Assembly: GCA_027574665.1 (NCBI GenBank)
Contig: CM050654.1
Span: 41,483,722 to 41,547,721 of the forward strand
Direction of reading: 5' to 3'
Length of the DNA: 64,000 bases
From: Rhynochetos jubatus
Taxonomy: Eukaryota > Chordata > Aves > Eurypygiformes > Rhynochetidae
Positions 310 through 27,600 of the stretch are shown here, in pieces (position 1 is the stretch's first letter; each line of letters starts with the position of its first letter). The notes beneath the pieces were generated by a model, which was not told where the DNA came from, ran no database searches, and saw only the letters and a list, made by a program, of their open reading frames with translations. Made by a program: the position numbers and the translations under genes.

Positions 310-621
310 ATCACTCTGGAGGTCGTAGGCCTTCCGTGCATGGATGACGTCGTTCTGGTCAGGAAGACAGGTCCACTGGTGAAGGTAATGGCGGTAGTCA
401 ACGTCGCTGACCATAGTCTGGCACTCCTTGGCTGCCTGCACCGACATCGCGTCCACTGGGATGTGGATCTGGGCCTTGGAATCATGGTACGCCTTCCGGT
501 AAATTCGGTCGTTCTGCAGCAACATGGCGCGCGCAGCCCATGACAGTTTGGGATCCTCCTTGGCAGTTCGGCACCCGACGTAGTGGCCTTTCTGCTTCTC
601 ATGCATTTCTTTGTATTTGTA
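310..621 (-). CDS. NEB: NEB c70: 312-bp three-module exon, residues 3754-3857 (last in window)
   Basis: Modules begin [40 protein letters not shown] and [20 protein letters not shown]; ends AYDLQSD; donor GTGAGT. The second module is strongly diverged from its paralogues (RIYRKAY for REYKKAF), so it has escaped the homogenisation seen to its right. The gene continues beyond position 1. Confidence 0.94.
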
Positions 622-3600: not shown

Positions 3601-6600
3601 AGACTCTCTTAATACTATTAGTTTAAATATCAATCTAGATAAAAACCCAAGGAGGATAATAAACTGTTATCCTGTGTTTCTTAGCAATGTTTCCTCATCC
3701 CAGAAGCAAAACCTGCAATTGCATATTTTTTTCTTGTTTTTGTATTTAGACACCTTGAATTTCAATGACACTTCAACAGAACTATTTTTTCCTCAGGAAA
3801 AGACAACAGTTTAGAACTTTTAGGACTGATTGGCTAATACATCCATTTTGGGGAGGGATTTGAAATTACTTCCCATTTTGAATCAGGAATTGACTCTAGC
3901 ATAAACTCATACACCTTATTGATCATCCTACTTCAACATCCATGGACATCAATGGAATTATTACAGTGGACATAGACATAAACCTCATATTATCTTATTT
4001 ATTTCTGTTATATGTATCTCATGCATAAAAACACTGGCTGTCAATTTGTGCTGGTTTGGGCTGGGATAGAGTTAATTTTCTTCCGAGTCCATAGCATGGG
4101 GCTGTGTTTCGGATTTGTGCAGGAAACTGCTGATAATACTGTGGCGTTTTCGTTACTGCTGAGCAGTGCTGACACAGAATCAAGGCCTTCTCACCCCACC
4201 CCACTAGTACGCTGGGAGGGGCCTACTACACAGCCAGGACAGCTGACCCCAACTGACCAAAGGGATGCTTCAGACCACATGGCATCACACTCAGCATATA
4301 GAGCTGGGGGGAGAAGGAGGAAGGGGGTGACGTTCTGAAGCCATACAGTAGAATCACTGGATTTCTGTATTCTCTGTTCTAGAAACTTGAGGTATTACAT
4401 TAACAAACAACGGAATAAACACTCTGATTCTTTTCCACTACCAAATCCATAGAGACACGATAGAAAAACTGCTTACATCACTGGCAATCTCCCTGGATGC
4501 TCTGGCAGCTTGGATAGGAATGGCATCAAAACGCAAATCATGACCTTTCTTCTTCGATTCCTCCAAAGCTAGTCTGTACATTTTCTGTGAGAAAAACAGT
4601 CACATTTTTGTTTCAAAAAAAAAAATTACACTTCAGTTAAGCACATCTGTGTAATAAAACAAGTTAAATCCCTACACAATATTGTTGAAGTTTAGACAAC
4701 TTAAATACAGCTGAATACAGCTCGATCTTCTCTAGAAAACAAAAAAATGCAGTTTTCAAAGAACATGTGATTGTATTGTAGATGACTGGAAACTGGAAAT
4801 CATTTAGGGAAGAGAAAAGAAGGAATAATCAGAAAGTTAAATTATTTATTTTCATACCTTACTATAGAAATGATTTCACATTTATGGCAGATAATATATT
4901 ACAAAAGCCCAATTATATACCCAGGAGGTAAATTCTAGTGAAAGAACAACTCTGATTTTAGCAGTGGAGCTGGCAATTTGTGAAACTAAACAGCTCAATA
5001 ATATGATAATTTTAATTAAAAGTCAGAGAAGACAAAACTGTATTTGTCAGAAATCCTTTCATCCTCTCAGCTCTTCAGTTTCACTCACCTGACTGTAGTG
5101 TAATTGGTTTTGTTTAGCGAGCAGGATTTCTGGTGTGTCGGGCATGACATGAACCATGGTCTTATCTTTATTCCATGCTTCAGTGTATAAACGCTAAGAA
5201 AGAACACAGTAAGAGATTAATATTGCATTCCAAAACAAGGTAATATCTCATTAATCAGGTAAAACATAGAGGATACGAGGTAAAATGATAGGAAATATAG
5301 GATGGATAAATGGTTCTGTATTTAGTCAGGTAGAGATAGTGTTATTAAAAAGAGAATTTATCTGAGGAAATTTATCAGCACTTAGGAAACTGCCACATTT
5401 CTTAAGAACAACGAATAAACCAAACCATTATTACTGCTCACTGCGTAGACATGTCAAAGAAAAGATGAAAATGTAATATGCAGAATATGATGACAAAGTT
5501 GAGTCTTCCATTACATGGTCGAATCGTTTTGATAGAAATGAACACAATTAAAATTCACCATTTGAAAATACATAACCTCTGAACTTCAGCATTACTTGTC
5601 ATCGTTACATTTCTAGGCCTGTCCCCAGGGTTTAGGCAGAGATTGCTGACGTGTTACCCAATCAACTCAAGATGCACCCACCTTATTCATCGTCTCCGCA
5701 TTCTGCTTGGCTAAGAGCATCTGTAGAGAATCAGTGACGCTAGTAAACTTGATTGTGTCTGGAGGCTGACGGTATATTTTATCGCTCAAGATCTCTCCTG
5801 CTTTCTTGGCTTTTTGAAGGTCCAAGGAGTCAATTGGGACCCAACCAATGCCCCGCAACCACTCAAGGTCAGACTTGTAGCAGTTCTATTACAAAAACAA
5901 GACACAGGTTATTCCAATAACAGCAATGCCACTTACACAGTGCATCTTTTCCCAGTTAAGTAACCTCACTATCAACATTTAATTCAAATAGATTCAAAAC
6001 CCTAGAGAAAAGTCTTAGAAAAAATCCCTGCATTTCATCTCTATTAAGAGCGAAATCATTATCCAAGTTACACAGAATGCAAATGATAAATAGCCCAAAT
6101 CCTGGAATTACAGGATATCATTTAAATATCAATTAGTTAACATATTCTATTGGAGATCTGAGTTTCAATTAGCCACAAAGCTTAAAAATAACTCTTGAAA
6201 ATATGGTTCTACCACACTGGTATGTGCTGGTCTGGGTCCACCTCTGTAAAATCTCAAATACATTCCTCATGGAAAATTAAATCAAAAGAGCTCACATCAC
6301 TCTGTAGTTCATAGGCCTTCTTAGCATGGATGACATCATTCTGGTCCGGCAGACAGATCCACTGGTGCAGATAGTGGCGGTAATCAACATCGCTCACCAA
6401 CTCTTGACACTTCTTGGCCAACACAATGCCCAGCATGTCCACTGGGCTGCTGAAGTGTGTCTTTGTCTTCTCAAAGGCCTTTTTGTACTCTCTGTCACTC
6501 TGGATCTTGGCTACGTGCATCGACCACATCATCTTCGGGTCATCCTCTATGTTACGGGCCCCGATGTGGTGGCCCAGCTGCTTGCGATAGCCTTCCTTGT

Positions 6601-9600
6601 ACTTGTACTGAAATATAAATCAAATCATTATACTTCTGTATCGCCTCTAAATATCAGTTACTCATATGAAATATTTCTAATAATAAATTTTCCGAATTTC
6701 ACTATAACCTACAGTCAAAAAATTGAAACTGTCAAAGCAATTCCATGGCTAATATAACGGATTCTCACGTTAAATTTTTGAGATTCCAGTTAGAATGCTA
6801 AAGTGTTTTTTTAAAACACCCTTCACTAATATGAGTGAGAAATAATCCTCTTCTTATTAAATATATTTAATCTTTATTAAATATATTAATATGCATGCTG
6901 TTAAGATTTCATTAAAGATACAGGTTTATGAGCTATAAAATTAACACGATAGCAGCATTCTATTGTCCTTGTAACCTCTCAATATTTAATTTTTACAATT
7001 ACGTCCTTAAACCTATATAAAAATTTGCTCACAAAAATGTATTATTTGCCATTTTAACAGAAATGCCTTTTACAGAATCCAGCTGATAACTCTCAGGTTG
7101 CAGAGATGGGGTGTCACCACACAAAGAAACAAAAAAGCAGTTTCTTACGTCACTGGCAATTTGCCTGGATGCCTTGGCAGCTTGAATGGGGATAGCATCA
7201 CTTCTCAAATCATAGCCTTTCTTTTTTGCTTCTTCCATGGCCTGTTTGTAGAGTTTCTAGGTGAAGAATTAAACAAGGGGATTCATGTAAGTTCCATATA
7301 TTACATTCTGTGCAAAACAAACTGCTTGTAAGTAGAGTAGATTTAAAAACTGCGTTGATTTATTCTACCCAGCTTTTTCTAACTTTCTAAACTCAAAGTC
7401 CCAGAGCAGTAGCTGATATGAATTCATATCAAAGGAAGATCTAAGCTAAATACATTAGCTAACAATTTTTTCTTTCAACACTTTAAATAACATTACATTG
7501 CCTACAGTTTAGGAGATGAACTATTCTTCTATACAAGTGGAGTAAGGTTTTAAAGCCAACTCTTACTGATGTGAATTTATCTGCCTAAACTAACACTGAA
7601 CACTGGGATCCCTGCTCCTCAGAATTGTGTTGGAAATCACCTTTTCGGTATTTACAATGTTGGAATTAATTTTGCGCCTTCCCAAGAGTATGCATCCTGG
7701 CAGAAATGACTCCCAAAAATTCACTGGCGACACACAACTTCTCATGGAATTTGTTCTCGGTAGTGCCCGCTGTTGTGTGTATGCACTACTGTACAAATAC
7801 GCAAACGATGCTTTTAAAGTCACAATTTTGAGGATAAATATTTGGGGGTTACTTAAAGAAACCAACAGTTTCTGTATCACATCATACAATATATGAAACA
7901 TCTGTATTAGGTTTGTCAGAGAAGTGATGATCCTGCCATAAACCAGACCAGTTCCGTCTGGAGAGCTAGCACACTCACCACACTGTAGTTGTGCATGTTC
8001 TGTTTTGCCAGTGTGATTTCAGGCGTGTCAGGCATGATGTGGATCTGTGTCTTGTCTTTATCCCAGGCTTCAGTATATAAACGCTGCAGGAGAAATAACG
8101 TATGTTAAAGGGAGAGAAAAAACTGTCACTATTTGGAGATCTCCTAAAACATAACAATTACAGATCTGTATTCCAAGTGTAAATACTCCTCATTCCAAAT
8201 ACAACTAGGAGATCTTATATTCGCTCCTCTAAATACTTACTGTCCAGGTTAAGCATTACTAACTTAGAAAGAATTCTTTTAAAAAACATATATTTAGGAA
8301 GACGGCACAAAGTGCCAATCAGACATACCGAGTTCTAAACTCTAAGAACAGAGCCTGTCTGAAAGAGGAAATGGTTTTATTGACATAAATAGGACTGAGA
8401 TCAGGGCCACAGATTTAGAAAAACTTACATTTTAAGAACTATGCTGAATTGTTTAAAATACAGATATCTCAAAGACTGCCCTAAAACAATTAGTTTATTG
8501 ATTACTAGATAAAATTGATAAACTAGTAGATTTATTAGACAAATTGTTATATTAAAAGATACAGAGGAAAGTTAGGTAACACATTCCTAGACACGCAGTA
8601 CAGTACGTGGAAAGCTTCAGACCTGATAATTCCATTTAACCTGCTAACTTGGAAGGTATTATTAAATTAGCACTTGCTGAAAAGAAGTGACCTGTTACCA
8701 CAGACGTAACTTACACTTTTAAAGCCTCGCTGTGCTGAAATCTCACACAGCAACCACACATCTGTACTTCTAGGCCTGTCCCCAGGGTTTAGGCAGAGAT
8801 TGCTGACGTGTTACCCAATCAACTCAAGATGCACCCACCTTATTCATCGTCTCCGCATTCTGCTTGGCTAAGAGCATCTGTAGAGAATCAGTGACGCTAG
8901 TAAACTTGATTGTGTCTGGAGGCTGACGGTATATTTTATCGCTCAAGATCTCTCCTGCCTTCTTGGCTTTTTGAAGGTCCAAGGAGTCAATTGGGACCCA
9001 ACCAATGCCCCGCAACCACTCAAGGTCAGACTTGTAGCAGTTCTATTACAAAACACAAAGACAGCCATCTCATTCATACTGCCAGTTAAACATTTCATGT
9101 ATACCATGCCACTACTGCTTAGTTTCTGTAAGATGCCTTCTCCTCCTAGTTCAATCTGCAAACCAATCTCTGTTAGGCACCTAGATTCAGATCCCTTCTC
9201 TGACTTCAAGAGGTATTGTTCACCCAACAACATGTTGGGGAATGGACAAAGAGTAATGGGTTTAAAACAAAACCCTGAAAGTCAATATAAACTTTTCCTG
9301 CAACACTGACTCCCAACAAATGTATGGTCAACCACTAAGAACAGCAGGTCTTAATTTATAGGGTTTTTCCTCAAAGATAGAACAAAGGAATTATCTCAAT
9401 TAAAGTCATGCCACTAAAAAAAAGTGATAGTAGGCAATTTCCTCTCTATATGCGGTGAAACTGCATAGAAAGGTATTAAGATTGCCTATTATGAAGGATT
9501 ATATGCAGCTATTTCTACAATTCAGCTAATAGATTAGCTGTATATAAACCTCCATAATACTCAACCTTCCCTACACACAGGTTCATTCACTCCAGAAAAT

Positions 9601-12600
9601 CTCATGACCTTGCTTGGAACAGGTATATCAAAACACTATGTGAAAAAACACTACGAGAGAGACAGTTCAAGCAGTATGTACAGCTTATATTTCAAGGAAA
9701 TGTCATACACTTTAGAGCTCCGACGCTTATCAGTGAGTACTCACATCACTCTGTAGTTCATAGGCCTTCTTAGCATGGATAACATCATTCTGGTCCGGCA
9801 GACAGATCCACTGGTGCAGATAGTGGCGGTAATCAACATCGCTCACCAACCCTTGACATTTCTTGGCCAACACGATGCCCAGCATGTCCACTGGGCTGCT
9901 GAAGTGTGTCTTTGTCTTCTCAAAGGCCTTTTTGTACTCTCTGTCACTCTGGATCTTGGCTACGTGCATCGACCACATCATCTTCGGGTCATCCTCTATG
10001 TTACGGGCCCCGATGTGGTGGCCCAGCTGCTTGCGATAGCCTTCCTTGTACTTGAACTGTGGGGAAAAAAAATGTTCAGTGAGTTTTAGTTTAGTTTTCC
10101 TGTCCCTAGCAGTCCCCCGTGGCACAGCCTCCAGAGAACTTAGTATGTGAAACCAGAGAGGCTTCAGAGTGTCAAAGTATTCAGCTGATGAACTGCAGTG
10201 TACAGCTACAAAAGGATTCACAGAACACTATCTGCCTGATACGACGTCCACATTTTCGAAGAAACTGCCTGGCTTACAAATTAAGAGCTACTACTCGGTA
10301 ACTGAGAGTAAAAAGTCACCAAGTTATATGTGATACAAAAGGCACAAAGCTCAATAAATGTCCCCTACATCAAAAATAAGGGAGCTTCAAGCACAATAGC
10401 CAAAAAAAAGGCCTATGAAATCTACTCAGGAGACAAAAACTGAAAGTGCACAGAGAGGTAGACCTGGAAGTTTAAATAAAGACACCACATATATATATAA
10501 AAAATAAATTTTCATATTAATACCTAATAATAGTAATAAATTGTTTACTATTATACTTTTACGCAAAAAGTTGGCTTGGGCTTTGTTTGCTCCTGTCCAG
10601 CTCAGCCATGTTGCTGCAATATTAGGGCTGTGTACATCCGCAGTTCAGAGGGCAGCACACCTCCTCCAAAGCCCAGCCGGTTGCAGGAGGACATGCTTCC
10701 ACAACTCCAGGAGGGACACTGATCGGCATTACATCCATCGCTCAGCTCCTGCTGCTACTCTCTCCACACTCCCTCGCAACACTGCACACCCATAACAGGC
10801 AGGGACAGCCTCGGGCAGACCCTCCAGAGCCAACACGATGACAGACTGGCAGCACAGGAATGACAGGCACGTGCTGAGTTGCCTCCAACCAGCTAAGGCT
10901 GCAAACCCTGGGCTGCACCTGCTGCACCCGGAAACTCTCCGATCGGGCGTGCTGCCCTCCTGGGTACTTACATCACTTGCAATGTCTCTGGAAGCTTTAG
11001 CAGACTTGATGGGAATGGCATCTGCCCGCATGTCGTAGCCCTTTTTCTTCTCTTCCTCCATCGCCAGCTTGTACAGTTTCTGAAAGAAAAACAAGCATCC
11101 CCCTCAAACAACCCTTCTTCCCCCGCGGGACACAGCAGCGTGCCGGGACGGACGCTCACCCCACCTCAAACACCCACCTCACTGAAGTTCACTTTGTTCT
11201 GCTGGGCCAGCAGAATACCAGGTGTGTCCGGCATAATGTGAATGCTGGTTTTGTCCTTCTCCCAGGCTGCTATGTACGAGCGCTGAAAACACAAGTGCAA
11301 CGTGAAATAAGATCATGAAGGCACCGGGCAACAAACTCAAAGAGCAAACGGGCTCCACAGAGTGAAGCCAGGGGCCCCGGCTTTGCACTGACTCCAGAAC
11401 ACCGCTTCTTGTCCCAGAACTTGCTAACGCTTCCCCCTTTGCCACACCGCACCCACTCACTGCTCCAACCACTAAACACAGGGGCACAAGGAACACAAAT
11501 CCCTGATGCAGGGGGATGCAGTAACTCCCCTCAACGCCCAGGGCCTGCAAGGAGACAGCCCAAAGTCCTGGGAAATGCACTCATTTCCTTCAGGCTGCAA
11601 ACCCACGGAAATCTCACTTGGTTCATAATTTCAGAGTTGTGCTTGGCCAGAAGCATCGGCATCGAGTCAGGAAGGCTTGTGAATTTGATGGTGTCCGGGT
11701 GCTGCCGATATGTCTTGTCACTCAGGATGCGGCTCGCCCGCTTATTCTTCTCATCATCCAGCGAACCACTTGGGGACCAGCCAATGCCCCTCAGCCACAG
11801 AAGGTCTGACTTGTACACGTTCTGGAAGGACAGGAAAGGACACAGAGCAGCTCAGCAACCCCCTGACTCCGTGACAACAATCCTCCTGCCACAGGCACCT
11901 CTGACTCCCAAAACACATTCATCTGGGTCAACCCACCAGCCATGACAAGAGGGACTCAGGTCCCCTCACCCTCGCTCCCCGTGCCTACAACAGCACAAGC
12001 AGGGGCCCCACAAACCCTCCCAAACCTCCTTCACAGACTCCCCAGGGAAGACCTGCCCCCTTTGGCAATCTCCACCTGGCACAGGCATGGGAGGAGCCTG
12101 ACACCTCATCACCTAACACTCCTCATACCATTTGCCACTGCACACGTGGCTTGCCTCTGCCTGCTCTGGGCCCTCCAAAAGATCATACTTGACCAAGTTG
12201 CCCTTCCCCTCCACACAGAACTCCAACCACCTGCCGCAAGACTCCCCCCAGAATGCTCAGGGCAAGGCACGACTCCTCTGTGGCCGTAAAGTACGACCCC
12301 ACACAAACGTCCTCCCTGCCCTTTCACAACAGCAACTCTCAGCAAGACAGTACGGCCACAGTCCCACCGCATCAGCCAGACTCCTGCTCCCCACACACAC
12401 CTTCTCCAGCAAAGGAACAGAACTCAAGAGAGACTGCTGCTTTCACACGGCCAGTGAAGAATAACTTACATCACTCTGAAGGTCGTACACTTTCCTGGCT
12501 TGTACTACATCGTTCTGGTCCGGCAGACACGTCCACCGATGCAGAGGGTGCTTGTAATCAATGTCGCTCACCAACTCCTGGCATTTCTTGGCCAACACAA

Positions 12601-15600
12601 TGTCCAGCATGTCCACTGGGCTGCTGAAGTGTGTCTTTGTCTTCTCAAAGGCCTTTTTGTACTCTCTGTCACTCTGGATCTTGGCTACGTGCATCGACCA
12701 CATCATCTTCGGGTCATCCTCTATGTTACGGGCCCCGATGTGGTGGCCCAGCTGCTTGCGATAGCCTTCCTTGTACTTGAACTGCAGGGGTAAAGAAGCA
12801 CAGTGAGTTTCAGCCCAGCCGTTCTCCCTCCTCACACTATTCTGTAGCAGCACCTGTGAACAAGCACATTGCTAACAGAGCCTGGCAAGATCACCCCACA
12901 AAGAGGGGTCTACGTGCACCTTACCCCTACTTTGCCCTACTCTTCCACCCCACCACACGCCCATGCTTCACCTCTGGAGTCACATGGAGGCCCAGACGCC
13001 AACTCCAACCACGCTAGCTCTGGAACCAGGAGTGATGCACGTGAGCAGGTGGCATGGAAACCTCTGGAAAACCACTGGAATTTTCCAGGCAGGTGACATA
13101 GGCCTCATCCTGCACAGCCCTGTCTGCACTCACCCACACAGCCCACAGCAGCTGACACACTGCACTGCACCAGGCTCTCCTGCACAGGGCTCAGCAGTCT
13201 TGTTCTCCCAGCCCAGTGTGGGCCCTCAGCTGCAGGTCAGCAGCCACTAAGCCTGGCGTGGGACAACGGGGAAGAGGACACTTCTTCAGCAATGCCATGT
13301 CAAAAGCTTATGACTGAAAAGTTAGAGACCAAGTGAACAAAGGAACTTTGTGACTGCCTTCTACTGCAGGCCACATCATCAAGGAGAGGAGGTGGAGGAA
13401 GTATTCTTTCTACAACAGCAGGAAAATTGCACTTGCAGGCCCTGGTCCTGGTAGGGGACTTCAACCACCCAAAGGTCTGCTGGAAAAGCAGCACGGCGAA
13501 CTGCAAGCAGTCCAGGAAACTACTGGATTGCGTTGACTTCCTATACCAGTGATGGAAGGCCTGACCATGGAAGAGGCAGTGCCAAACTTGTTGGTCACTA
13601 ATGGGGAAGAACTTACTGAAGAGGTCAAGATTGGAGGTAGCCTGGGCTGCAGGAAGCATGTCCTGGTAGAATTCTCCATCTTGAGGGGTACAGGACAGGT
13701 AAAAATTAGAGTCAGTGCCCTAAACCTCGGAAAGGCAAACCTTCAGTTGTTTACAGCCCTAGTGAGTGGGATCCCTTTGGAAACTGCCGTCAGACATAAA
13801 GGAGTGAACGAACACTCGGATGTATTTAAAGACATTTTTCTTAGGATGCAAGAGCTCTCAATCCCAACATGCACGAAGTCAGGCAGGTGAGGCAGGAGGC
13901 CACCTTGGCTAAGTCAAGACCTCTTAGCCAAACTAAAACCCAAACCCAAAATGCTTAGGCAGTAGAGACAGGGATAGGCATCCTGGGAAGATTATAGGGT
14001 TATGGTCCAGGATTGCAGGGAGTGGAATCAGGAAAGCCAAGGCACAGTTGGAGCTGAGCTTGGATAGGGATGTAAAAAATAACAAGAAGGGTTTGTTCAG
14101 GTACAGAGGACAATAAAGGAAGATGAAAGAGACTGTACCTCCCCTATGAGTGAAACAGGAGACATGGCTACAACTGACATGGAGAAGGCTGAGGTACTCA
14201 GCAACCTTTTTTCCTCAGTTTTCTCTAGCCACGCTGCCCAATTCACTGAATCCAAAGCCAGGGACTGGGAGAATGAAGTGCTGCCCATCACAGGAGAAGA
14301 TCAGGTTCAAGAGCATCTAAGGAACCTAAAAGTGCCCAGGTCGATGGGATCTGACCAGATGCATCCGCCGATCCTGAGGGAACTGGCAGATGAAGTTGCT
14401 AAGCCACTATCCATCATATTTGAGTAGTTGCGGTCTGGTGAAGCTCGCACTGATCAGAAAAGGGGAAACTTAACTCCCATCTTTAAAAAGAGAAAAAAGG
14501 AAGACACGGGGAACTACAGGCCAGTCAGCCTCATCCCTGTGCCTGGCAAGATCATGGAGCAGATCCTCCGGGAAACTCTGCTAAAGCACACTGAAAACAG
14601 ATAAACAGATAGGTGATTGGTGAAAGCCAGTATGATTTCACCAAGGGCAAATCGTGCCTGACAAGTTTGGTGGCCTTCTACAGCAGGGTTACAGTGTTGG
14701 TAGATAAGGGAAGAGTGACTGGCATAATCTACCTGGACATGCACAAAGCATTTGACATTGTTCCACACAACATCCTTGTCTCTAAAATGGAGAGACATGG
14801 ATTTGACCAGTGGACCATTTGGTGGATAAAGAATTGGCTGGATGGCTGCACTCAAAGAGTTGCAGACAATGGCTCGATGTCTGGGTAGAGGCCAATGAGA
14901 AGTGCTGTCCTTCAGGGGTCTGTACTGGGACCAGTATTAATCAACATCTTTGTTAGGGGCATGGAAAGTGGGATCAAGTGCAGCCTCAGCAAGTTTGTGG
15001 ATGACACCAGGCTGAGTGGTGTGGGTGAAATGCTGGAGGGAAGGGATGGCATCCAGAGGGACCTGGAAAGGCTGGGCCTGTGCCAACCTCATGAAGGCAA
15101 AGCGCAAGACCATGCACATGGGTCAGGGCAATCCTAAGCACTAGTACAGGCTGGGCAGAGAGCGGGTTGGTAACAGTCCTGAGGAGAAGGACTTGGGGGT
15201 GCTGGGGGATGAGCCAGCCGTGTGTGCTGGCAGCCCAGAAAGCCACCTGTATCCTGGGCTGCTTCAAAAGCAGCATGACCACCAGGTCAAGGGAGGGGAT
15301 TCTACCCCTCTGCTCCACTCTGGGGAGGATCATCCCCTGCAGTTCTGCCTCCAGCTCTGGGGCCCCAACAGCAGAAGGACACGAAGCTGTTGGGGCGAGG
15401 CCAGAGGAGACCATGGAGATGCTGCGAGGGCTGGAGCCCCTCTGCCATGGGGACAGGCTGGGGGAGTTGGGGGGTTCAGCCTGGAGAAGGGAAGGCTCTG
15501 GAGAGACTTTACAGTAGCCTACTGGTACTTAAAGGAGGCGTGAAGGAATGATGGGGAGGGTATCTTTCTCAGGGAGTGGAATGATAGGAAAAGGCAAACT

Positions 15601-18600
15601 GGTTTTACATGAAAGAGGGTAGATTTAGATTAAAAATTACAAAGAAATTCTTTACTGTGAGGGTGGTAAGGCAATGGGACAGGTTGCCCAGAGAGGCTGT
15701 GGATGTCCCATCCCTGGAAGTGTCCAAGGCCAGGCTGGATGAGGCTTGGAGCAACCTGGGCTATGGAAGGTGTCCCTGCCCATGGCAGGGGGTGGCACTG
15801 GGTGGGCTTTAAGGCCCCTTCCCACCCAAACCATTCTGTGAGACTGTAACTGTATGATACTATGAGGTATTCACACACCTATTCCTAAAAAATCAGGTAA
15901 GACTGAGGAGAACTTGCTGCCGCGGCCTCCTGGGTACTTACATCACTTGCAATGTCTCTGGAAGCTTTAGCAGACTTGATGGGAATGGCATCTGCCCGCA
16001 TGTCGTAGCCCTTTTTCTTCTCTTCCTCCATCGCCAGCTTGTACAGTTTCTGAAAGAAAAACAAGCATCCCCCTCAAACAACCCTTCTTCCCCCGCGGGA
16101 CACAGCAGCGTGCCGGGACGGACGCTCACCCCACCTCAAACACCCACCTCACTGAAGTTCACTTTGTTCTGCTGGGCCAGCAGAATACCAGGTGTGTCCG
16201 GCATAATGTGAATGCTGGTTTTGTCCTTCTCCCAGGCTGCTATGTACGAGCGCTGAAAACACGAGTGCAACGTGAAATAAGATCATGAAGGCACCGGGCA
16301 ACAAACTCAAAGAGCAAACGGGCTCCACAGAGTGAAGCCAGGGGCCCCGGCTTTGCACTGACTCCAGAACACCGCTTCTTGTCCAGAACTTGCTAACGCT
16401 TCCCCCTTTGCCACACCGCACCCACTCACTGCTCCAACCACTAAACACAGGGGCACAAGGAACACAAATCCCTGATGCAGGGGGATGCAGTAACCCCCCT
16501 CAACACCCAGGGCCTGCAAGGAGACAGCCCAAAGTCCTGGGAAATGCACTCATTTCCTTCAGGCTGCAAACCCACGGAAATCTCACTTGGTTCATAATTT
16601 CAGAGTTGTGCTTGGCCAGAAGCATCGGCATCGAGTCAGGAAGGCTCGTGAATTTGATGGTGTCTGGGTGCTGCCGATATGTCTTGTCACTCAGGATGCG
16701 GCTCGCCCGCTTATTCTTCTCATCATCCAGCGAACCACTTGGGGACCAGCCAATGCCCCTCAGCCACAGAAGGTCCGACTTGTACACGTTCTGGAAGGAC
16801 AGGAAAGGACACAGAGCAGCTCAGCAACCCCCTGACTCCGTGACAACAATCCTCCTGCCACAGGCACCTCTGACTCCCAAAATACATTCATCTGGGTCAA
16901 CCCACCAGCCACGACAAGAGGGACTCAGGTCCCCTCACCCTCGCTCCCCGTGCCTACAACAGCACAAGCAGGGGCCCCACAAACCCTCCCAAACCTCCTT
17001 CACAGACTCCCCAGGGAAGACCTGCCCCCTTTGGCAATCTCCACCTGGCACAGGCATGGGAGGAGCCTGACACCTCATCACCTAACACTCCTCATACCAT
17101 TCGCCACTGCACACGTGGCTTGCCTCTGCCTGCTCTGGGCCCTCCAAAAGATCATACTTGACCAAGTTGCCCTTCCCCTCCACACAGAACTCCAACCACC
17201 TGCCGCAAGACTCCCCCCAGAATGCTCAGGGCAAGGCACGACTCCTCTGTGGCCGTAAAGTACGACTCCACACAAACGTCCTCCCTGCCCTTTCACAACA
17301 GCAACTCTCAGCAAGACGGTACGGCCACAGTCCCACCGCATCAGCCAGACTCCTGCTCCCCACACACACCTTCTCCAGCAAAGGAACAGAACTCAAGAGA
17401 GACTGCTGCTTTCACACGGCCAGTGAAGAATAACTTACATCACTCTGAAGGTCGTACACTTTCCTGGCTTGTACTACATCGTTCTGGTCCGGCAGACACG
17501 TCCACCGATGCAGAGGGTGCTTGTAATCAATGTCGCTCACCAACTCCTGGCATTTCTTGGCCAACACAATGTCCAGCATGTCCACTGGGCTGCTGAAGTG
17601 TGTCTTTGTCTTCTCAAAGGCCTTTTTGTACTCTCTGTCACTCTGGATCTTGGCTACGTGCATCGACCACATCATCTTCGGGTCATCCTCTATGTTACGG
17701 GCCCCGATGTGGTGGCCCAGCTGCTTGCGATAGCCTTCCTTGTACTTGAACTGCAGGGGTAAAGAAGCACAGTGAGTTTCAGCCCAGCCGTTCTCCCTCC
17801 TCACACTATTCTGTAGCAGCACCTGTGAACAAGCACATTGCTAACAGAGCCTGGCAAGATCACCCCACAAAGAGGGGTCTACGCGCACCTTACCCCTACT
17901 TTGCCCTACTCTTCCACCCCACCACACGCCCATGCTTCACCTCTGGAGTCACATGGAGGCCCAGACGCCAACTCCAACCACGCTAGCTCTGGAACCAGGA
18001 GTGATGCACGTGAGCAGGTGGCATGGAAACCTCTGGAAAACCACTGGAATTTTCCAGGCAGGTGACATAGGCCTCATCCTGCACAGCCCTGTCTGCACTC
18101 ACCCACACAGCCCACAGCAGCTGACACACTGCACTGCACCAGGCTCTCCTGCACAGGGCTCAGCAGTCTTGTTCTCCCAGCCCAGTGTGGGCCCTCAGCT
18201 GCAGGTCAGCAGCCACTAAGCCTGGCGTGGGACAACGGGCAACACAAGACCTTTTCCCCCACCTCTGACTGAATTGTGAAGGAAGGCTAAGGAGAGGTTG
18301 AACTCATCTCCCTGCAGTAAGGGAACAAACCTGGATTACAGAACCACGCATGAGAGAGTAAATTCAGGTTCTACACTGCTAAGCCCTGAGAAGGTGATCA
18401 TCTGGGGTACGGTAGTGACTGGGCCTGCCCCAGTCCAGACAGAAACAATAAATGCCCTGCTTCTTAAACAAAACTTGGCTTGGGCTTTGTTTGCTCCTGT
18501 CCAGCTCAGCCATGTTGCTGCAATATTAGGGCTGTGTACATCCGCAGTTCAGAGGGCAGCACACCTCCTCCAAAGCCCAGCCTGTTGCAGGAGGACATGC

Positions 18601-21600
18601 TTCCACAACTCCAGGAGGGACACTGATCGGCATTACATCCATTGCTCAGCTCCTGCTGCTACTCTCTCCACACTCTCTCCACGCTCCCTTGCAACACTGC
18701 ACACCCATAACAGGCAGGGACAGCCTCGGGCAGACCCTCCAGAGCCAACACGATGACAGACTGGCAGCACAGGAATGACAGGCACGTGCTGAGTTGCCTC
18801 CAACCAGCTAAGGCTGCAAACCCTGGGCTGCACCTGCTGCACCCGGAAACTCTCCGATCGGGCGTGCTGCCCTCCTGGGTACTTACATCACTTGCAATGT
18901 CTCTGGAAGCTTTAGCAGACTTGATGGGAATGGCATCTGCCCGCATGTCGTAGCCCTTTTTCTTCTCTTCCTCCATCGCCAGCTTGTACAGTTTCTGAAA
19001 GAAAAACAAGCATCCCCCTCAAACAACCCTTCTTCCCCCGCGGGACACAGCAGTGTGCCGGGACGGACGCTCACCCCACCTCAAACACCCACCTCACTGA
19101 AGTTCACTTTGTTCTGCTGGGCCAGCAGAATACCAGGTGTGTCCGGCATAATGTGAATGCTGGTTTTGTCCTTCTCCCAGGCTGCTATGTACGAGCGCTG
19201 AAAACACAAGTGCAACGTGAAATAAGATCATGAAGGCACCGGGCAACAAACTCAAAGAGCAAACGGGCTCCACAGAGTGAAGCCAGGGGCCCCGGCTTTG
19301 CACTGACTCCGGAACACCGCTTCTTGTCCCAGAACTTGCTAACGCTTCCCCCTTTGCCACACCGCACCCACTCACTGCTCCAACCACTAAACACAGGGGC
19401 ACAAGGAACACAAATCCCTGATGCAGGGGGATGCAGTAACTCCCCTCAACGCCCAGGGCCTGCAAGGAGACAGCCCAAAGTCCTGGGAAATGCACTCATT
19501 TCCTTCAGGCTGCAAACCCACGGAAATCTCACTTGGTTCATAATTTCAGAGTTGTGCTTGGCCAGAAGCATCGGCATCGAGTCAGGAAGGCTCGTGAATT
19601 TGATGGTGTCCGGGTGCTGCCGATACGTCTTGTCACTCAGGATGTGGCTCGCCCGCTTATTCTTCTCATCATCCAGCGAACCACTTGGGGACCAGCCAAT
19701 GCCCCTCAGCCACAGAAGGTCCGACTTGTACACGTTCTGGAAGGACAGGAAAGGACACAGAGCAGCTCAGCAACCCCCTGACTCCGTGACAACAATCCTC
19801 CTGCCACAGGCACCTCTGACTCCCAAAACACATTCATCTGGGTCAACCCACCAGCCATGACAAGAGGGACTCAGGTCCCCTCACCCTCGCTCCCCGTGCC
19901 TACAACAGCACAAGCAGGGGCCCCACAAACCCTCCCAAACCTCCTTCACAGACTCCCCAGGGAAGACCTGCCCCCTTTGGCAATCTCCACCTGGCACAGG
20001 CATGGGAGGAGCCTGACACCTCATCACCTAACACTCCTCATACCATTTGCCACTGCACACGTGGCTTGCCTCTGCCTGCTCTGGGCCCTCCAAAAGATCA
20101 TACTTGACCAAGTTGCCCTTCCCCTCCACACAGAACTCCAACCACCTGCCGCAAGACTCCCCCCAGAATGCTCAGGGCAAGGCACGACTCCTCTGTGGCC
20201 ATAAAGTACGACCCCACACAAACGTCCTCCCTGCCCTTTCACAACAGCAACTCTCAGCAAGACGGTACGGCCACAGTCCCACCGCATCAGCCAGACTCCT
20301 GCTCCCCACACACACCTTCTCCAGCAAAGGAACAGAACTCAAGAGAGACTGCTGCTTTCACACGGCCAGTGAAGAATAACTTACATCACTCTGAAGGTCG
20401 TACACTTTCCTGGCTTGTACTACATCGTTCTGGTCCGGCAGACACGTCCACCGATGCAGAGGGTGCTTGTAATCAATGTCGCTCACCAACTCCTGGCATT
20501 TCTTGGCCAACACAATGTCCAGCATGTCCACTGGGCTGCTGAAGTGTGTCTTTGTCTTCTCAAAGGCCTTTTTGTACTCTCTGTCACTCTGGATCTTGGC
20601 TACGTGCATCGACCACATCATCTTCGGGTCATCCTCTATGTTACGGGCCCCGATGTGGTGGCCCAGCTGCTTGCGATAGCCTTCCTTGTACTTGAACTGC
20701 AGGGGTAAAGAAGCACAGTGAGTTTCAGCCCAGCCGTTCTCCCTCCTCACACTATTCTGTAGCAGCACCTGTGAACAAGCACGTTGCTAACAGAGCCTGG
20801 CAAGATCACCCCACAAAGAGGGGTCTAAGCACAGAATACTAGTTGTTCAACACACCCCGCATCTACAGTCAACAACATGACAACATAAGGCACCCAGAGG
20901 GCCAGACATGCAGGTCAGGAACCATGAGGAATGCATGCCAACAGACAGGGTCTCCACACAACCAAAACATCCTCACGGAGGGACCATCTCAGCAGCTGGC
21001 AATCAAAACACAGAGAAAACCAATGGACTGTTCCAGCAGGCGACATGGGCCTCATCCTGCACAGCCCTGTCTGCACTCACCCACACAGCCCACAGCAGCT
21101 GACACACTGCACTGCACCAGGCTCTCCTGCACAGGGCTCAGCAGTCTTGTTCTCCCAGCCCAGTGTGGGCCTTCAGCTGCAGGTCAGCAGCCACTAAGCC
21201 TGGCGTGGGACAACGGGCAACACAAGACCTTTTCCCCCACCTCTGACTGAATTGTGAAGGAAGGCTAAGGAGAGGTTGAACTCATCTCCCTGTAGTAAGG
21301 GAACAAACCTGGATTACAGAACCACGCATGAGAGAGTAAATTCAGGTTCTACACTGCTAAGCCCTGAGAAGGTGATCATCTGGGGTACGGTAGTGACTGG
21401 GCCTGCCCCAGTCCAGACAGAAACAATAAATGCCCTGCTTCTTAAACAAAACTTGGCTTGGGCTTTGTTTGCTCCTGTCCAGCTCAGCCATGTTGCTGCA
21501 ATATTAGGGCTGTGTACATCCGCAGTTCAGAGGGCAGCACACCTCCTCCAAAGCCCAGCCTGTTGCAGGAGGACATGCTTCCACAACTCCAGGAGGGACA

Positions 21601-24600
21601 CTGATCGGCATTACATCCATTGCTCAGCTCCTGCTGCTACTCTCTCCACACTCTCTCCACGCTCCCTTGCAACACTGCACACCCATAACAGGCAGGGACA
21701 GCCTCAGGCAGACCCTCCAGAGCCAACACGATGACAGACTGGCAGCACAGGAATGACAGGCACGTGCTGAGTTGCCTCCAACCAGCTAAGGCTGCAAACC
21801 CTGGGCTGCACCTGCTGCACCCGGAAACTCTCCGATCGGGCGTGCTGCCCTCCTGGGTACTTACATCACTTGCAATGTCTCTGGAAGCTTTAGCAGACTT
21901 GATGGGAATGGCATCTGCCCGCATGTCGTAGCCCTTTTTCTTCTCTTCCTCCATCGCCAGCTTGTACAGTTTCTGAAAGAAAAACAAGCATCCCCCTCAA
22001 ACAACCCTTCTTCCCCCGCGGGACACAGCAGCGTGCCGGGACGGACGCTCACCCCACCTCAAACACCCACCTCACTGAAGTTCACTTTGTTCTGCTGGGC
22101 CAGCAGAATACCAGGTGTGTCCGGCATAATGTGAATGCTGGTTTTGTCCTTCTCCCAGGCTGCTATGTACGAGCGCTGAAAACACAAGTGCAACGTGAAA
22201 TAAGATCATGAAGGCACCGGGCAACAAACTCAAAGAGCAAACGGGCTCCACAGAGTGAAGCCAGGGGCCCCGGCTTTGCACTGACTCCAGAACACCGCTT
22301 CTTGTCCCAGAACTTGCTAACGCTTCCCCCTTTGCCACACCGCACCCACTCACTGCTCCAACCACTAAACACAGGGGCACAAGGAACACAAATCCCTGAT
22401 GCAGGGGGATGCAGTAACCCCCCTCAACACCCAGGGCCTGCAAGGAGACAGCCCAAAGTCCTGGGAAATGCACTCATTTCCTTCAGGCTGCAAACCCACG
22501 GAAATCTCACTTGGTTCATAATTTCAGAGTTGTGCTTGGCCAGAAGCATCGGCATCGAGTCAGGAAGGCTTGTGAATTTGATGGTGTCCGGGTGCTGCCG
22601 ATACGTCTTGTCACTCAGGATGCGGCTCGCCCGCTTATTCTTCTCATCATCCAGCGAACCACTTGGGGACCAGCCAATGCCCCTCAGCCACAGAAGGTCC
22701 GACTTGTACACGTTCTGGAAGGACAGGAAAGGACACAGAGCAGCTCAGCAACCCCCTGACTCCGTGACAACAATCCTCCTGCCACAGGCACCTCTGACTC
22801 CCAAAACACATTCATCTGGGTCAACCCACCAGCCACGACAAGAGGGACTCAGGTCCCCTCACCCTCGCTCCCCGTGCCTACAACAGCACAAGCAGGGGCC
22901 CCACAAACCCTCCCAAACCTCCTTCACAGACTCCCCAGGGAAGACCTGCCCCCTTTGGCAATCTCCACCTGGCACAGGCATGGGAGGAGCCTGACACCTC
23001 ATCACCTAACACTCCTCATACCATTCGCCACTGCACACGTGGCTTGCCTCTGCCTGCTCTGGGCCCTCCAAAAGATCATACTTGACCAAGTTGCCCTTCC
23101 CCTCCACACAGAACTCCAACCACCTGCCGCAAGACTCCCCCCAGAATGCTCAGGGCAAGGCACGACTCCTCTGTGGCCGTAAAGTACGACCCCACACAAA
23201 CGTCCTCCCTGCCCTTTCACAACAGCAACTCTCAGCAAGACGGTACGGCCACAGTCCCACCGCATCAGCCAGACTCCTGCTCCCCACACACACCTTCTCC
23301 AGCAAAGGAACAGAACTCAAGAGAGACTGCTGCTTTCACACGGCCAGTGAAGAATAACTTACATCACTCTGAAGGTCGTACACTTTCCTGGCTTGTACTA
23401 CATCGTTCTGGTCCGGCAGACACGTCCACCGATGCAGAGGGTGCTTGTAATCAACGTCGCTCACCAACTCCTGGCATTTCTTGGCCAACACAATGTCCAG
23501 CATGTCCACTGGGCTGCTGAAGTGTGTCTTTGTCTTCTCAAAGGCCTTTTTGTACTCTCTGTCACTCTGGATCTTGGCTACGTGCATCGACCACATCATC
23601 TTCGGGTCATCCTCTATGTTACGGGCCCCGATGTGGTGGCCCAGCTGCTTTCGGTAGGCAGTTTTGTATTGGTACTAATTGAATGGGAAACAACAATTAT
23701 CACCTCTTTTCAAGCTGCAGTTTAAATTTGTCTGTTGTTAATATAGTGGTTAAAATGTTTATATGTAATACATTTTAAGTTTTTCTGCACATTTTTCCAA
23801 TATTTTTGGTGATTTTATTACATGGCAAGGAGATAGGAACTGATTTTTTTGTAGTTATCCATTATCTCCGTTTAGATTATTGTATTTAATTTAATTAACT
23901 TTATGTCATTATGAATTATACAACCTCTAGGGAGGGCAGCAATGTAAGACTGTTAACATTTTAAATGCCTTTTCATTTTAAATAAAAACCGTCTTTATCC
24001 AAACGCCTTTACCAGCTCTATGCCCCACTAGGTTTTTCGCTCTGTAGGACTTACTTCACTGGCTATGTCTCTGGATGCCTTTGCTGCCTTGAGCGGTATA
24101 GCATCAGGAGGGAGATCGTAGCCTTTCCTCTTCAGCTCTTCATATCCTAACTTGTAACGTTTCTGTTGGAGAAGGATTCAGAGTAATTATTGGAAATAAA
24201 GTTCTCAAGAGACTTTTACCATACTACAACTTTCCGCCCCTAAATACTGAATATTAAAGTATGAGATTCCAAACACAGTTTCATTCATCAAACTAAATTC
24301 TGTAGGTTGCTTATAATAATGTAACTGGTGATACAAAATATTTTATAATCACTCTCTATGTTATCTGATTAACTCATTCGAGATGAAAATTTTCTTGTAC
24401 TTAACCTATTCACCTGAATGATTCATCGAGTCTCCTACTGAGGTGAATAACAATGATTCTCTACACCCAATTGCAATTATTTTTGTCTTCTTGAGTTCTT
24501 ATGACAGAGCTGCTAATACTCCTTTACCTATGCCTGTAGCCTATGTTTGTTACATTATAAGCAGCAGTTGGACGTAAGTGACAATCCTGTGTAAATCTCA

Positions 24601-27600
24601 TGAGACAGTTCAGTATAATCACATACTTTAACAAGAATGACAGGCTTACTAAAACTTACTGAACACACATCTGCAATGTTAATATTATCAGTAGGGATGA
24701 AAGAGAAAACTGCTAACTTGGCCTGAACATCTTCTGGTACAGTCTAGCAACTCCACTTCCACTTTATATTTTAGCAATTCCACTTGGGCTTCCCAGTGCG
24801 TAAGAATTTTCCCAAGAACAGACCACAGGTTACAGCTGTTGGAATTGCAGAATTACGCTACTGCATTTTCAACTGAAACCACAATGGGTAATTGAAAATT
24901 CCACAAAAGAAACATTGCAGAAACACACTTACATCACTTGTGTTAATTAAGTTTGATTTAGCCAGCAAAATTTCAGGAGTATCAGGCATGATGTGAACCT
25001 GAGTCTTGTCCTTGTCCCAGGCTTCTCTGTACAGTCTCTGAAAAGAGACACAAACAAAAATACCTTGTCTGATAAAAGGCTCATGTGCACAGCAGTAAAT
25101 TCAGTTTACCTCCTCTCTGCAACAGCAAAGCAAAGATGTTCTACACAAGCATGAGCGATGCAAACAATGCAAGATATTAAAATGAAATAATACAATGACT
25201 TCTTACTCAATTACCACATTTTTTTCTTCTTTACATCCATGAAATGTCAGGGAAAAAGCATTATGACATTTACATACTACATAGTAAAGGGCCTCATTTG
25301 CAGTTGTTACTAAGTCATACAGCCCCAAAGACCTTAAACTTCTGAACAAGGTGTAGTGTTTCCTGACAACTGAGCAGTAAGGCACAGACCAGCAACGTCT
25401 GATATTTGTCTTTTTAACAAATGTATGCTAATGTATGCATTTATTTAATCACATGCCCTGTCTCTAGAGGCAACTTACATCACTTCTGTTTCTGGCATTA
25501 GATTTTGCTAAAACAATATTCATGGCATCTGGGATACTTGTGAACTTAATAGTATCCGGGTGCTGCCGGTACTTCTTTTCACTCAGTATTTCAGAAGCTT
25601 TCTTGTTCTTTTCAGATTCCAAAGATCCCAAAGGACTCCATCCAAGGCCTCTGAGCCATTGTAGATCTGACTTGTACAGATTCTGTTACGAAAAAAAATC
25701 AAAACCATAGTAGATTATTTCCCTGCTCATTTACTACACCATATTAAAAGACTAACTGGTATTTCAGCTTCCATCTGATCTATACTGACATCAAAAGAGA
25801 GTCATTAAAGATATTTTTCAATAAGCAGTAAATATCTTACAAAAAATGCATTCATTAAATCCAGAAGAAGCTTACATCACTCTGAAGTTCGTAGACCCTC
25901 TTTGCCTGGGTGACGTCATTCTGGTCTGGCAGACAGGTCCAGCGGTGTAGCATCCGTTTGTAGTCTATATCACTCACCAGTTCCTGACATTTTTTAGCCA
26001 GAAGGAAGCCTAGCATATCCACAGGCATATTAAACTTCGTCTTCCACTTCTCAAAATCTTTCTTGTACTCCCTCTCACTCTGCATCTTGGCTACTTTCAT
26101 AGACCACAGCATCTTAGGATCATCCTGCAAGCTGCGGAATCCAATGTGATGTCCCTGCTGCTTGCGGTAACCTTCTTTGTACTTGTACTAAAACGATCAA
26201 GGTTGTGGTATTGAAATGACAGTAAGAAACAGACAATGGTAACATATATAAGCAAAATACCAATCTAGTCACTCAGCTCAATGTTTCTCACTACCAATGA
26301 AATGAGCAACTTGTTATGGCACCTCATGTAAAGGTTTAGGAGCCCCTTGATTAATGTGCACCATTTGGTATCGGTGAATGCTCTCCCTGGGAATGAGCGG
26401 CATCCCTGGAGAGGAAGAGTGCATGGCTATAGGCATGGTCTCCTGTGCCATCTGATTCTTACTCATACTGTTCAGAACTCCCAAAGGCTGACACCGAAAT
26501 ATTTTGATGAATAAAACAATCAACAATGAAAAACGCAGATGTTTAAGCACTGGAAGCATTTCCTAACGATTAGTAAGGTCTCTTCCATACATGCAGGAGT
26601 TGTACTCATACCAAGTGATGATAACAGCAATACATGTGTGACCACATCCATCTCGGGTTGTAAAGAGGATTTCTCAGTACAGGTACTGGGATCAACTAAC
26701 TGAGCCAAATTTGCTGCTGCTCTGAAAATGTAACATCCAAAAGAGCAGCTAACTCCTAACTTGTATGACTTCATGGATGGACCACGAGCTTTGGAATCGC
26801 CAAGACACCAGAGCAACCCTTCTTAAATTGTTTTCTTCACTGACAAGAACAGATCAGGAAAGAGCTTTGTCAGCAATTTTGCTTTTTACTCCAAGCCATA
26901 CCATAGCAGAGAGGTGTATCTGGATCTAGAGCGACTCTCTCGTTATCACAACTAGATAAAGTGCGTGTCATATTGAATTTGAGATGTTGCTTACGTCACT
27001 TGCAATGTCCCTTGAAGCTTTGGCAGCTTTCACTGAAATGGCTTCAGGTGTGAGGTCATAGCCTTTCTTTATCATTTCCTCCCAGCCGAGCTTGTACTGT
27101 TTCTAAAATTGAAAACAGTATTAATGAAAAAGTCTTAGTAATACTTAGGTCACCTTTTATTTAGATACGCTAATGATCCATATTGCCAAGTTCTGGTCAG
27201 CTCACAGGCTTCAGTTACAAGAGAAGGGCCTCTAGAATGGGAACTGAGAAACGGGAAACTGATAAGCAAGGGGCACAGGCCTTCCAAGTCTCAGGTTAGT
27301 GATTAGATAGGTTTTCTTTACTGCAGCAGCCTCCTACTATAGCTTATCTTGGGGTTATGAAACATATCTGGGGAATTTGAAATACATACTTCTGGGATAA
27401 CCAAAGACTTTTTAATTGGCTTAACAAAATTTTAATTAATAAGGCTGTCCTGTAGCCATTCATAATGAATTCAGTTTGTGCACAGTTGATTTTAAGTACC
27501 AGCACTTGGAAGTCAAAGATTTGCTGCTGAGCAACCATGCAAAGCAAAGCCTAAGTGTTTTATATTGACACAGTTGTCACCTTCTCATATTTGAAAGCTG

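What the first reader, a model, noticed from the sequence alone, without database searches (positions are those of the whole stretch)
10570..23651. Four-copy amplification of a single nebulin super-repeat, probably independent of the mammalian triplicate region
Seen: the same four exons (312, 204, 105, 108 bp) with the same introns occur four times in a row at about 2.95-2.98 kb spacing. Known (from memory): human NEB has a triplicate region, three blocks of eight exons each, at the comparable HHIGARxIxDDPKMMW part of the protein. Inference: the bird array has a different unit (4 exons, one super-repeat) and copy number, so the same stretch of the ruler seems to have been amplified separately in two lineages. 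This changes the protein by 279 residues per unit and could vary between individuals or species.
Basis: partly seen in the sequence, partly recalled or inferred. Interest (0 to 1): 0.85.

Follow-up and report, generated by a model that had tools for sequence, protein, structure and literature searches.

The report
Bird nebulin's self-homogenising repeat block
A stretch of the muscle "ruler" gene nebulin is present in four almost identical tandem copies in this bird; the other birds compared carry it in two to four copies, and the copies appear to be kept alike within a lineage by repeated copying between them, which makes it an old and variable part of the ruler rather than a recent one-off amplification.

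Summary
On the minus strand, the 312-204-105-108 bp exons of one nebulin super-repeat occur four times in 10566-23657. Spacings are 2978, 2946 and 4969 bp; in the third a decayed LINE stands in place of intron. One unit adds 243 residues, not 279.
This is not a recent amplification in one bird: the block sits at the same place in 26 of 26 birds (window plus the 25 bird species listed), in 2-4 copies, and 24 of 26 share a junction signature. In seven distant lineages 22 of 22 copies match their own species best; in 18 oscines only 16 of 71 do. Mosaic tracts and GC enrichment that stops at the array's edges point to concerted evolution by GC-biased gene conversion.
Independence from the mammalian triplicate is likely but unproven, because homogenisation erases origin. 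The one-super-repeat unit is not bird-specific: an elephant seal protein shows one too.
Super-repeat amplification in many vertebrate lineages was already known (Bjorklund 2010, cited in PMC3484663). What seems new, in the papers searched, is the avian concerted evolution and its base-composition footprint.

The parts
10566..23657 (-). Whole array: four tandem copies of one nebulin super-repeat
   Evidence: blastn self-comparison, 98.8-99.4% identity; repeat families
21865..23674 (-). Copy 1 (first in the gene): exons 23363-23674, 22511-22714, 22071-22175, 21865-21972; its 312 exon starts [10 protein letters not shown], unlike the others
18887..20696 (-). Copy 2: exons 20385-20696, 19533-19736, 19093-19197, 18887-18994; 312 exon starts [10 protein letters not shown]
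15942..17750 (-). Copy 3: exons 17439-17750, 16587-16790, 16148-16252, 15942-16049
10972..12781 (-). Copy 4: exons 12470-12781, 11618-11821, 11178-11282, 10972-11079
13274..15866 (+). Decayed LINE (RVT_1 pieces in three successive ORFs; CR1-type by its 3' end, recalled) between copies 3 and 4; it stands where 629 bp of unit intron are missing
   Evidence: Pfam RVT_1 4.9e-9 at 14613-14888, below cut-off at 14428-14604 and 14889-15137; junctions
20834..21050 (.). Unhomogenised tract in the intron between copies 1 and 2: 20834-20990 without detectable homology, 20991-21050 77% to copies 3 and 4, with about 99% identity on both sides
9745..10056 (-). 312 exon of the super-repeat after the array (SR11); no difference from copy 4 in the first 178 nt, 27 in the last 129 nt
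6296..6607 (-). 312 exon of SR12; same mosaic, 98.4% to SR11
2963..3274 (-). 312 exon of SR13; same mosaic
5611..5904 (-). Putative conversion tract around the 204 exon (5682-5885): 99% to 8768-9063 and about 70 bp into one intron, then no similarity
8768..9063 (-). Partner of the tract at 5611-5904 (204 exon 8839-9042)
25876..26187 (-). 312 exon of SR6, the super-repeat before the array, used as upstream anchor

Best explanation
The block is an old tandem array of one nebulin super-repeat (seven actin-binding modules, four exons, 243 residues). Proposed history: unequal crossing-over inside the conserved 312-bp exon, between this super-repeat and the next one, made in-frame tandem copies before the bird lineages compared here diverged. 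Since then, recurrent gene conversion between copies, with occasional unequal crossing-over that changes the number to 2, 3 or 4, has kept the copies alike within each lineage while lineages diverge. Repair biased towards G and C has raised GC in the homogenised DNA. Shown: the copies, the junction signature, lineage-wise clustering, mosaic tracts, the GC contrast. Inferred: crossing-over and biased conversion as mechanisms, a single origin, and the effect that each extra unit lengthens the nebulin ruler by one 38.5-nm thin-filament period (spacing from PMC7109182, passages) when all units are spliced in.
For: Array in 26 of 26 birds (window plus the 25 bird species listed, one isoform each): 21 with four copies, 3 with three, 2 with two. 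Junction: the first copy starts Y[QK]YKTAYRKQ, while later copies (one Oenanthe copy reads YKYKKGYRKQ) and the next super-repeat start [FY]KYKEGYRKQ, in 24 of 26; the two parrots lack it. Seven distant lineages: 22 of 22 copies nearest to their own species; within 0.993, between 0.918, no memory of position (0.9185 versus 0.9177). In a tree of 10 of the 26 birds each bird's copies are monophyletic (support missing for 2, 0.547-0.994 for 8). In the window: for the four copy pairs not touched by the odd tract, introns differ by 0.27-0.75% and exons by 0.4-0.7%; all three two-against-two groupings of copies occur (4, 1 and 1 sites; my reading). Copy 4 against SR11-13: 0-1 synonymous codon differences in the first 61 codons of the 312 exon, 10-13 in the last 43. 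A 77% tract inside 99% flanks. GC: 15 of 15 array introns at 0.546-0.602 versus 0.246-0.448 in 50 others, steps at both edges (one edge intron, 0.464, half inside the block, in neither group); GC3 0.674 in 21 exons with a paralogue of at least 95% versus 0.454 in 43 others, Spearman rho 0.65, n = 64. Homogenisation plus high intron GC and GC3 is a published sign of gene conversion (PMC2720389, passages).
Against: Among the 18 oscines only 16 of 71 copies are nearest to their own species (17 ties, 38 nearer another species), and in the larger tree Poecile and Taeniopygia copies intermix, so homogenisation there is slower than speciation. Independent duplication of the same unit in each lineage, always by crossing-over in the same exon, would give a similar junction. 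The listing (120 of 1197) was ranked by score against the array region, which may favour array-bearing proteins. The GC excess could be original to the amplified unit: no other bird's DNA was available. Published mammalian gene arrays show the opposite trend, AT rising with copy number (PMC10463633, passages). Four exons without a close paralogue in the window also have GC3 above 0.56 (35243, 7979, 25876, 310). Copy numbers in other species come from predicted isoforms.
Confidence: 0.75

Rival explanations
1. Separate recent amplifications: each bird lineage duplicated the same super-repeat anew by unequal crossing-over in the 312 exon, so copies are alike because they are young.
For: Copies in the window differ by less than 1% outside the odd tract, and copies cluster by lineage. 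Near-identical super-repeat groups in 9 of 19 mammals and in a shark sit at differing positions with differing unit sizes, so new amplifications do occur.
Against: The same super-repeat is amplified in 26 of 26 birds, with the same junction in 24 of 26. Copy 2 keeps a 77% tract inside 99% flanks. Homogenised exons lie outside the array, beside introns that no longer align. GC enrichment needs time.
Confidence: 0.15
2. One ancestral amniote array underlies both the bird block and the mammalian triplicate region; each class then homogenised it separately.
For: In birds and in the four mammals of the tree the stretch after SR6 and before the ortholog pair bird SR13/mammal SR12 (Macrotis numbering) lacks one-to-one orthology between the classes. 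In deer and takin, as in birds, the first copy differs from the next mainly at the start of the 312 exon (residues 1-19 in deer; 1-21 and 91 in takin).
Against: Unit size differs (two super-repeats in human, deer and takin). In the elephant seal, homology with the following super-repeat runs to residue 156, against 59 in the window and 43-76 in two other birds. Ten of 19 mammalian isoforms examined have no pair at or above 0.96, although isoforms may omit copies.
Confidence: 0.2
3. Assembly artefact: duplicate haplotypes or collapsed and re-expanded repeats.
For: Identity of 99% between copies is where assemblers err, and no reads were available.
Against: The copies carry private features: a different first exon start, a LINE, an unhomogenised tract and single-base differences. 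The 25 other birds, many on contigs of tens of megabases, show the same array.
Confidence: 0.02

Closest known systems
Human NEB triplicate region (exons 82-105)
   Same: Tandem, about 99% identical, in-frame super-repeat copies inside nebulin; copy number varies
   Different: Human unit is eight exons, 10 kb, two super-repeats, three copies (PMC12402328 and PMC7109182, passages); here four exons, about 3 kb, one super-repeat, four copies. No human sequence was compared
Tandem super-repeat duplications in vertebrate nebulins (Bjorklund 2006, 2010)
   Same: Seven-domain unit encoded by four exons, described for chicken nebulin (PMC1553488, passages); amplification in many vertebrate lineages (2010 paper as cited in PMC3484663)
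   Different: The passages read do not describe homogenisation between copies, clustering by species or a GC footprint; the 2010 paper itself was not held
Concerted evolution by biased gene conversion in mammalian gene pairs (PMC2720389)
   Same: Paralogues more alike than orthologues, mosaic tracts, raised GC in introns and GC3
   Different: Here the units are exon groups inside one gene and their number varies, so crossing-over probably takes part as well
Nebulin super-repeat number across vertebrates (Gohlke 2021)
   Same: Variation of super-repeat number between species; seen only as a title in reference lists
   Different: Paper not held; whether it describes this array is unknown to me

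Membership tests
Nebulin super-repeat | Seven nebulin modules in about 243-245 residues, with the WLRGIGW-type motif | tested here: met
   243 residues, PF00880 6.8e-38 (five stretches pass on their own), WLRGIGW in the 204 exon
Nebulin super-repeat | Four-exon block repeated along the gene (PMC1553488) | tested here: met
   Order 108-312-204/207-105 recurs along the window
Human-type NEB triplicate region | Eight-exon, two-super-repeat unit | tested here: not met
   Four-exon unit; neighbours at lag 1 are 98-100% alike
Human-type NEB triplicate region | Same place in the super-repeat region | tested here: inconclusive
   Zone between SR6 and bird SR13/mammal SR12 shared with the four mammals of the tree; human and the amplified units of deer and elephant seal were not in the tree
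Concerted evolution by gene conversion | Paralogues within a species more alike than orthologues | tested here: met
   22 of 22 copies in seven distant lineages; but only 16 of 71 in oscines
Concerted evolution by gene conversion | Mosaic of converted and diverged tracts | tested here: met
   312 exon boundary at nt 178/179; 77% tract; tracts confined to exons
Concerted evolution by gene conversion | Raised GC in introns and at third codon positions | tested here: met
   with four exceptions among exons
Concerted evolution by gene conversion | Exchange seen directly in pedigrees or polymorphism | not testable with these tools
   No reads or population data

The most novel reading that the evidence does not exclude
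In birds one internal segment of the thin-filament ruler is a self-maintaining length cassette: homology inside the 312-bp exon drives both copy-number change in 38.5-nm steps and GC-biased conversion that has rewritten about 13 kb of an AT-rich gene to GC-rich over some tens of millions of years, and copy number still varies between bird species or individuals with an effect on thin-filament length.
Probability: 0.2. Interest if true: 0.7.

Novelty: new member of a known kind. Interest (0 to 1): 0.5.

Why it matters
It turns a suspected recent, bird-specific amplification into a shared avian feature with an identifiable mechanism. It offers a compact test bed for GC-biased gene conversion, with sharp edges, internal controls in the same gene and replicate lineages. 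Because each unit should correspond to one 38.5-nm thin-filament period, natural copy-number differences between birds could test whether nebulin length sets thin-filament length. It also warns that super-repeat counts in bird nebulin depend on how assemblies and gene models treat this block.

Tried and rejected
Rejected: assembly artefact as main reading (private features of the copies; same array in the other birds). Rejected: purifying selection alone as the cause of identical exons, since synonymous sites are nearly identical too and one tract runs about 70 bp into intron. Rejected: one simple duplication tree for the four copies, since all three two-against-two groupings occur (read; six sites only). 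Tried for DNA relatives: the genome search on the window's own assembly did not complete, so no other bird's introns were compared. The third protein search, meant to bring turtles and crocodiles, listed 120 mammalian proteins only; ancestry outside birds stays open. Solved structures: no sequence match to the unit. Tandem Repeats Finder does not list the array (its longest period is 500). An automatic placement of the downstream anchor by best identity was unreliable in mammals (it jumped between super-repeats 9 and 15), so I used the tree instead. The tree holds 297 super-repeats from the window and 16 species; units outside 235-250 residues were dropped. Partial bird proteins were not used in any count. 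Paper searches: one search used a two-of-four rule and none of its ten listed papers mentions nebulin; required both terms; (nebulin, chicken, super-repeats, exon, avian; four of five) found 25 papers, of which I saw eight titles, none on this array.
Full report
What is there. The window's minus strand carries a long stretch of a nebulin gene. My exon search asked for AG and GT borders, phase 0 and nebulin-like motifs and gave 67 exons that join to 3763 residues; further exons probably lie above 52 kb but were not modelled. From 44.6 kb downwards the exons follow the super-repeat order 108-312-204 (or 207)-105 bp, 729 or 732 bp per super-repeat. I number super-repeats by their 312 exons along the gene: SR1 at 44346 to SR14 at 310. 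Copies 1-4 of the array are SR7-SR10, with 312 exons at 23363, 20385, 17439 and 12470. A blastn self-comparison puts the homology block at 10566-23657 with 98.8-99.4% identity between the long aligned stretches. Three details are not: one of the three spacings is 4969 bp, the unit adds 243 residues rather than 279, and not all introns are the same.

The odd introns. Between copies 3 and 4, about 2.65 kb (13274-15925) stands where the other copies have 629 bp of unit intron. It holds three successive reading frames with pieces of reverse transcriptase (Pfam RVT_1, 4.9e-9 for one, below the cut-off for two) and ends in a motif I recall as typical of CR1 LINEs. The 60 bp after it (15867-15926) match nothing else in the window at E 0.01. 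Between copies 1 and 2, 20834-20990 shows no homology to the matching place in copy 3 (alignment score no better than 200 shuffles), and 20991-21050 is 77% identical to copies 3 and 4, while both flanks are about 99% identical. Such divergence inside a 99% context is hard to explain if all four copies are young, though the tract is short.

Age and spread. A protein search with the array region returned full-length nebulins of many vertebrates (1197 matches, the best 120 listed; ranking by score against this region may favour proteins that have the array). I took one isoform for each of the 25 bird species in that listing and cut the proteins into super-repeats with a profile of the window's 312 exons. 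All 25 have near-identical tandem super-repeats after the counterpart of SR6. With the window, 21 of 26 have four copies, 3 have three (Chrysolophus, Aptenodytes, Ammospiza) and 2 have two (Gallus, Pezoporus). These are predicted isoforms, so the numbers are provisional. In 24 of 26 the first copy begins Y[QK]YKTAYRKQ, while later copies (save one Oenanthe copy, YKYKKGYRKQ) and the super-repeat after the array begin [FY]KYKEGYRKQ. This is what a crossover inside the 312 exon, between the amplified super-repeat and the next one, would leave. In the window copy 1 differs from copy 4 at ten sites in the first 24 nt, and copy 4 from SR11 only after nt 178, so the crossover interval is about residues 7-59. 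Both parrots lack the signature: their super-repeat before the array ends with the array's 108 exon, as if the first unit had been fused with SR6.

Concerted evolution. Leaving out the first 12 residues, each of 22 copies from seven distant lineages (window, Gallus, Chrysolophus, Patagioenas, Aptenodytes, Pezoporus, Pseudopipra) is nearest to a copy of its own species; mean identity is 0.993 within and 0.918 between species, and copies at the same position in two species are no more alike than copies at different positions (0.9185 versus 0.9177). In a tree of 10 of the 26 birds, with only two oscines, each bird's copies are monophyletic (10 of 10; support missing for two, 0.547-0.994 for eight). 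In the larger tree the 34 array copies from ten birds group together (0.91; the node that adds the parrot's fused unit has 0.05), while flanking super-repeats largely group by position across species. The results against: among 18 oscines only 16 of 71 copies are nearest to their own species, 17 tie and 38 are nearer to another species, with slight memory of position (0.982 versus 0.978), and Poecile and Taeniopygia copies intermix in the larger tree. Homogenisation is therefore slower than oscine speciation.

Conversion tracts in the window. For the four copy pairs that the odd tract does not touch, introns differ by 0.27-0.75%; for copy 2 against 3 and 4 the figure is 6.1 and 5.6% with the tract included; exons differ by 0.4-0.7%, the first 23 nt of copy 1's 312 exon left out. 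With an avian rate near 2e-9 per site per year (recalled) this is about one to two million years since the last homogenisation, far less than the age of the bird lineages that share the array. Six two-against-two sites fall into all three possible groupings (4, 1, 1; my reading). Homogenisation reaches beyond the array: copy 4 differs from the 312 exons of SR11, SR12 and SR13 at 2-3 of the first 183 nt (0-1 synonymous codon differences) but at 27-28 of the last 129 nt (10-13 synonymous). The 204 exons of SR11 and SR12 are 99% identical, and the match runs about 70 bp into one intron and then stops. Selection on the protein does not explain identity at synonymous and intron sites.

Base composition. 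All 15 array introns have GC 0.546-0.602 (LINE removed); 50 other introns have 0.246-0.448; the intron at the left edge (10057-10971), half inside the block, has 0.464 and is in neither group. The 15 are four intron types in copies; four types all above 50 others has a rank probability of about 3e-6 if types are independent. GC in 100-bp windows steps at both edges: 0.26 to 0.57 at 10.5/10.6 kb and 0.48 to 0.27 at 23.6/23.7 kb. Third-position GC follows homogenisation exon by exon, also outside the array: 0.674 in 21 exons with a paralogue of at least 95%, 0.454 in 43 others, rho 0.65 (three exons of other lengths left out). Four of the 43 exceed 0.56: the 105 exons at 35243 and 7979 and the 312 exons at 25876 and 310. 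High GC in introns and third positions of homogenised regions is a published sign of biased gene conversion (PMC2720389, passages).

Mammals and others. I examined one isoform each of 19 mammals (12 of the 14 taxa, all 7). Nine have a super-repeat pair of at least 0.96: deer and takin a two-super-repeat unit (lag-2 identity 0.98-1.00 at 9-12); an elephant seal three super-repeats 0.99-1.00 alike at lag 1 (10-12); two water buffaloes (13-16), two cattle species (15/17), donkey and horse (16/18) lag-2 pairs further downstream. Ten have none: Equus przewalskii, pangolin (0.96 only when rounded), elephant, bilby, marmot and five primates. Of eight other vertebrates picked, a shark has a pair of 0.99 and Amphiprion one of 0.96; two frogs, the lungfish and three other fishes have none. 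Chicken has a further pair of 0.97, and 19 of 19 passerines have a second pair of 0.98-1.00. The human triplicate is eight exons, 10 kb, three blocks at 99% identity; gain or loss of one block is held benign, and totals of 5 to 14 copies have been seen (PMC12402328, passages). In the tree, which holds four mammals but neither human nor the amplified deer or seal units, the stretch between SR6 and the pair bird SR13/mammal SR12 has no one-to-one orthology between birds and mammals. Unit size, and the extent of homology with the following super-repeat (residue 156 in the elephant seal, 59 in the window, 76 in Patagioenas, 43 in Taeniopygia), differ; deer and takin resemble birds in that the first copy differs at the start of the 312 exon. 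Separate amplification is the better reading, though a shared ancestral array homogenised twice is not excluded. No reptile protein was obtained.

What is known. Amplification of seven-module, four-exon blocks was described for chicken nebulin in 2006 (PMC1553488, passages), and super-repeat amplification in many vertebrate lineages is credited to Bjorklund 2010 (PMC3484663, passage). From memory, the 2010 abstract reports recent tandem duplications whose unit varies between and within species and an Alu at the human junction; that paper and Gohlke 2021 are not held. In the library searched, one paper has both "nebulin" and "concerted evolution" (a spider silk paper that has nebulin only in its reference list), and eight have both "nebulin" and "gene conversion": in three of these I read the nebulin passages, none of which describes conversion in nebulin; the other five I saw only as a listing. 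The array is thus a new member of a known kind; its avian concerted evolution and GC footprint are what seem new.

How it probably works. Exchange between homologous points in the 312 exons of successive super-repeats adds or removes whole seven-module units in frame, which explains why copy number can change without breaking the protein. Conversion between copies keeps them alike and enriches GC. Each unit should add one 38.5-nm thin-filament period to the ruler (spacing from PMC7109182, passages), about 77 nm between two and four copies if all are spliced in; this last step is inference only.

Noticed in passing
Bird proteins P0134, P0069, P0075 and other passerines, super-repeats 10 and 11 (9 and 10 in P0065): A second tandem pair (0.98-1.00 identical) downstream of the array in 19 of 19 passerines listed, not found at 0.96 or more in the six non-passerine birds and the window.
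   Followed up: partly
P0164/P0167 (Pezoporus) and P0125 (Melopsittacus), super-repeat before the array: In both parrots the super-repeat before the array ends with the array's 108 exon and the junction signature is missing, as if the first unit had been fused by unequal crossing-over.
   Followed up: partly
P0189, P0211, P0226, P0247, P0199, P0225, super-repeats 13-18: Water buffalo, cattle and horse/donkey nebulins have near-identical lag-2 super-repeats further downstream than the deer and takin block, so ruminants differ among themselves.
   Followed up: partly
window 310-621: 312 exon with GC3 of 0.73 but no close paralogue in the window; partners may lie beyond the window's left end.
   Followed up: no
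window 10057-10565: AT-rich intron part beside the array without homology to the array's introns, although the sequence next to it (10566-10971) is shared; it may mark where the original intron was replaced.
   Followed up: partly
window 51808-51877 and 55887-55921: Two short tandem repeats (periods 33 and 14) outside the finding.
   Followed up: no
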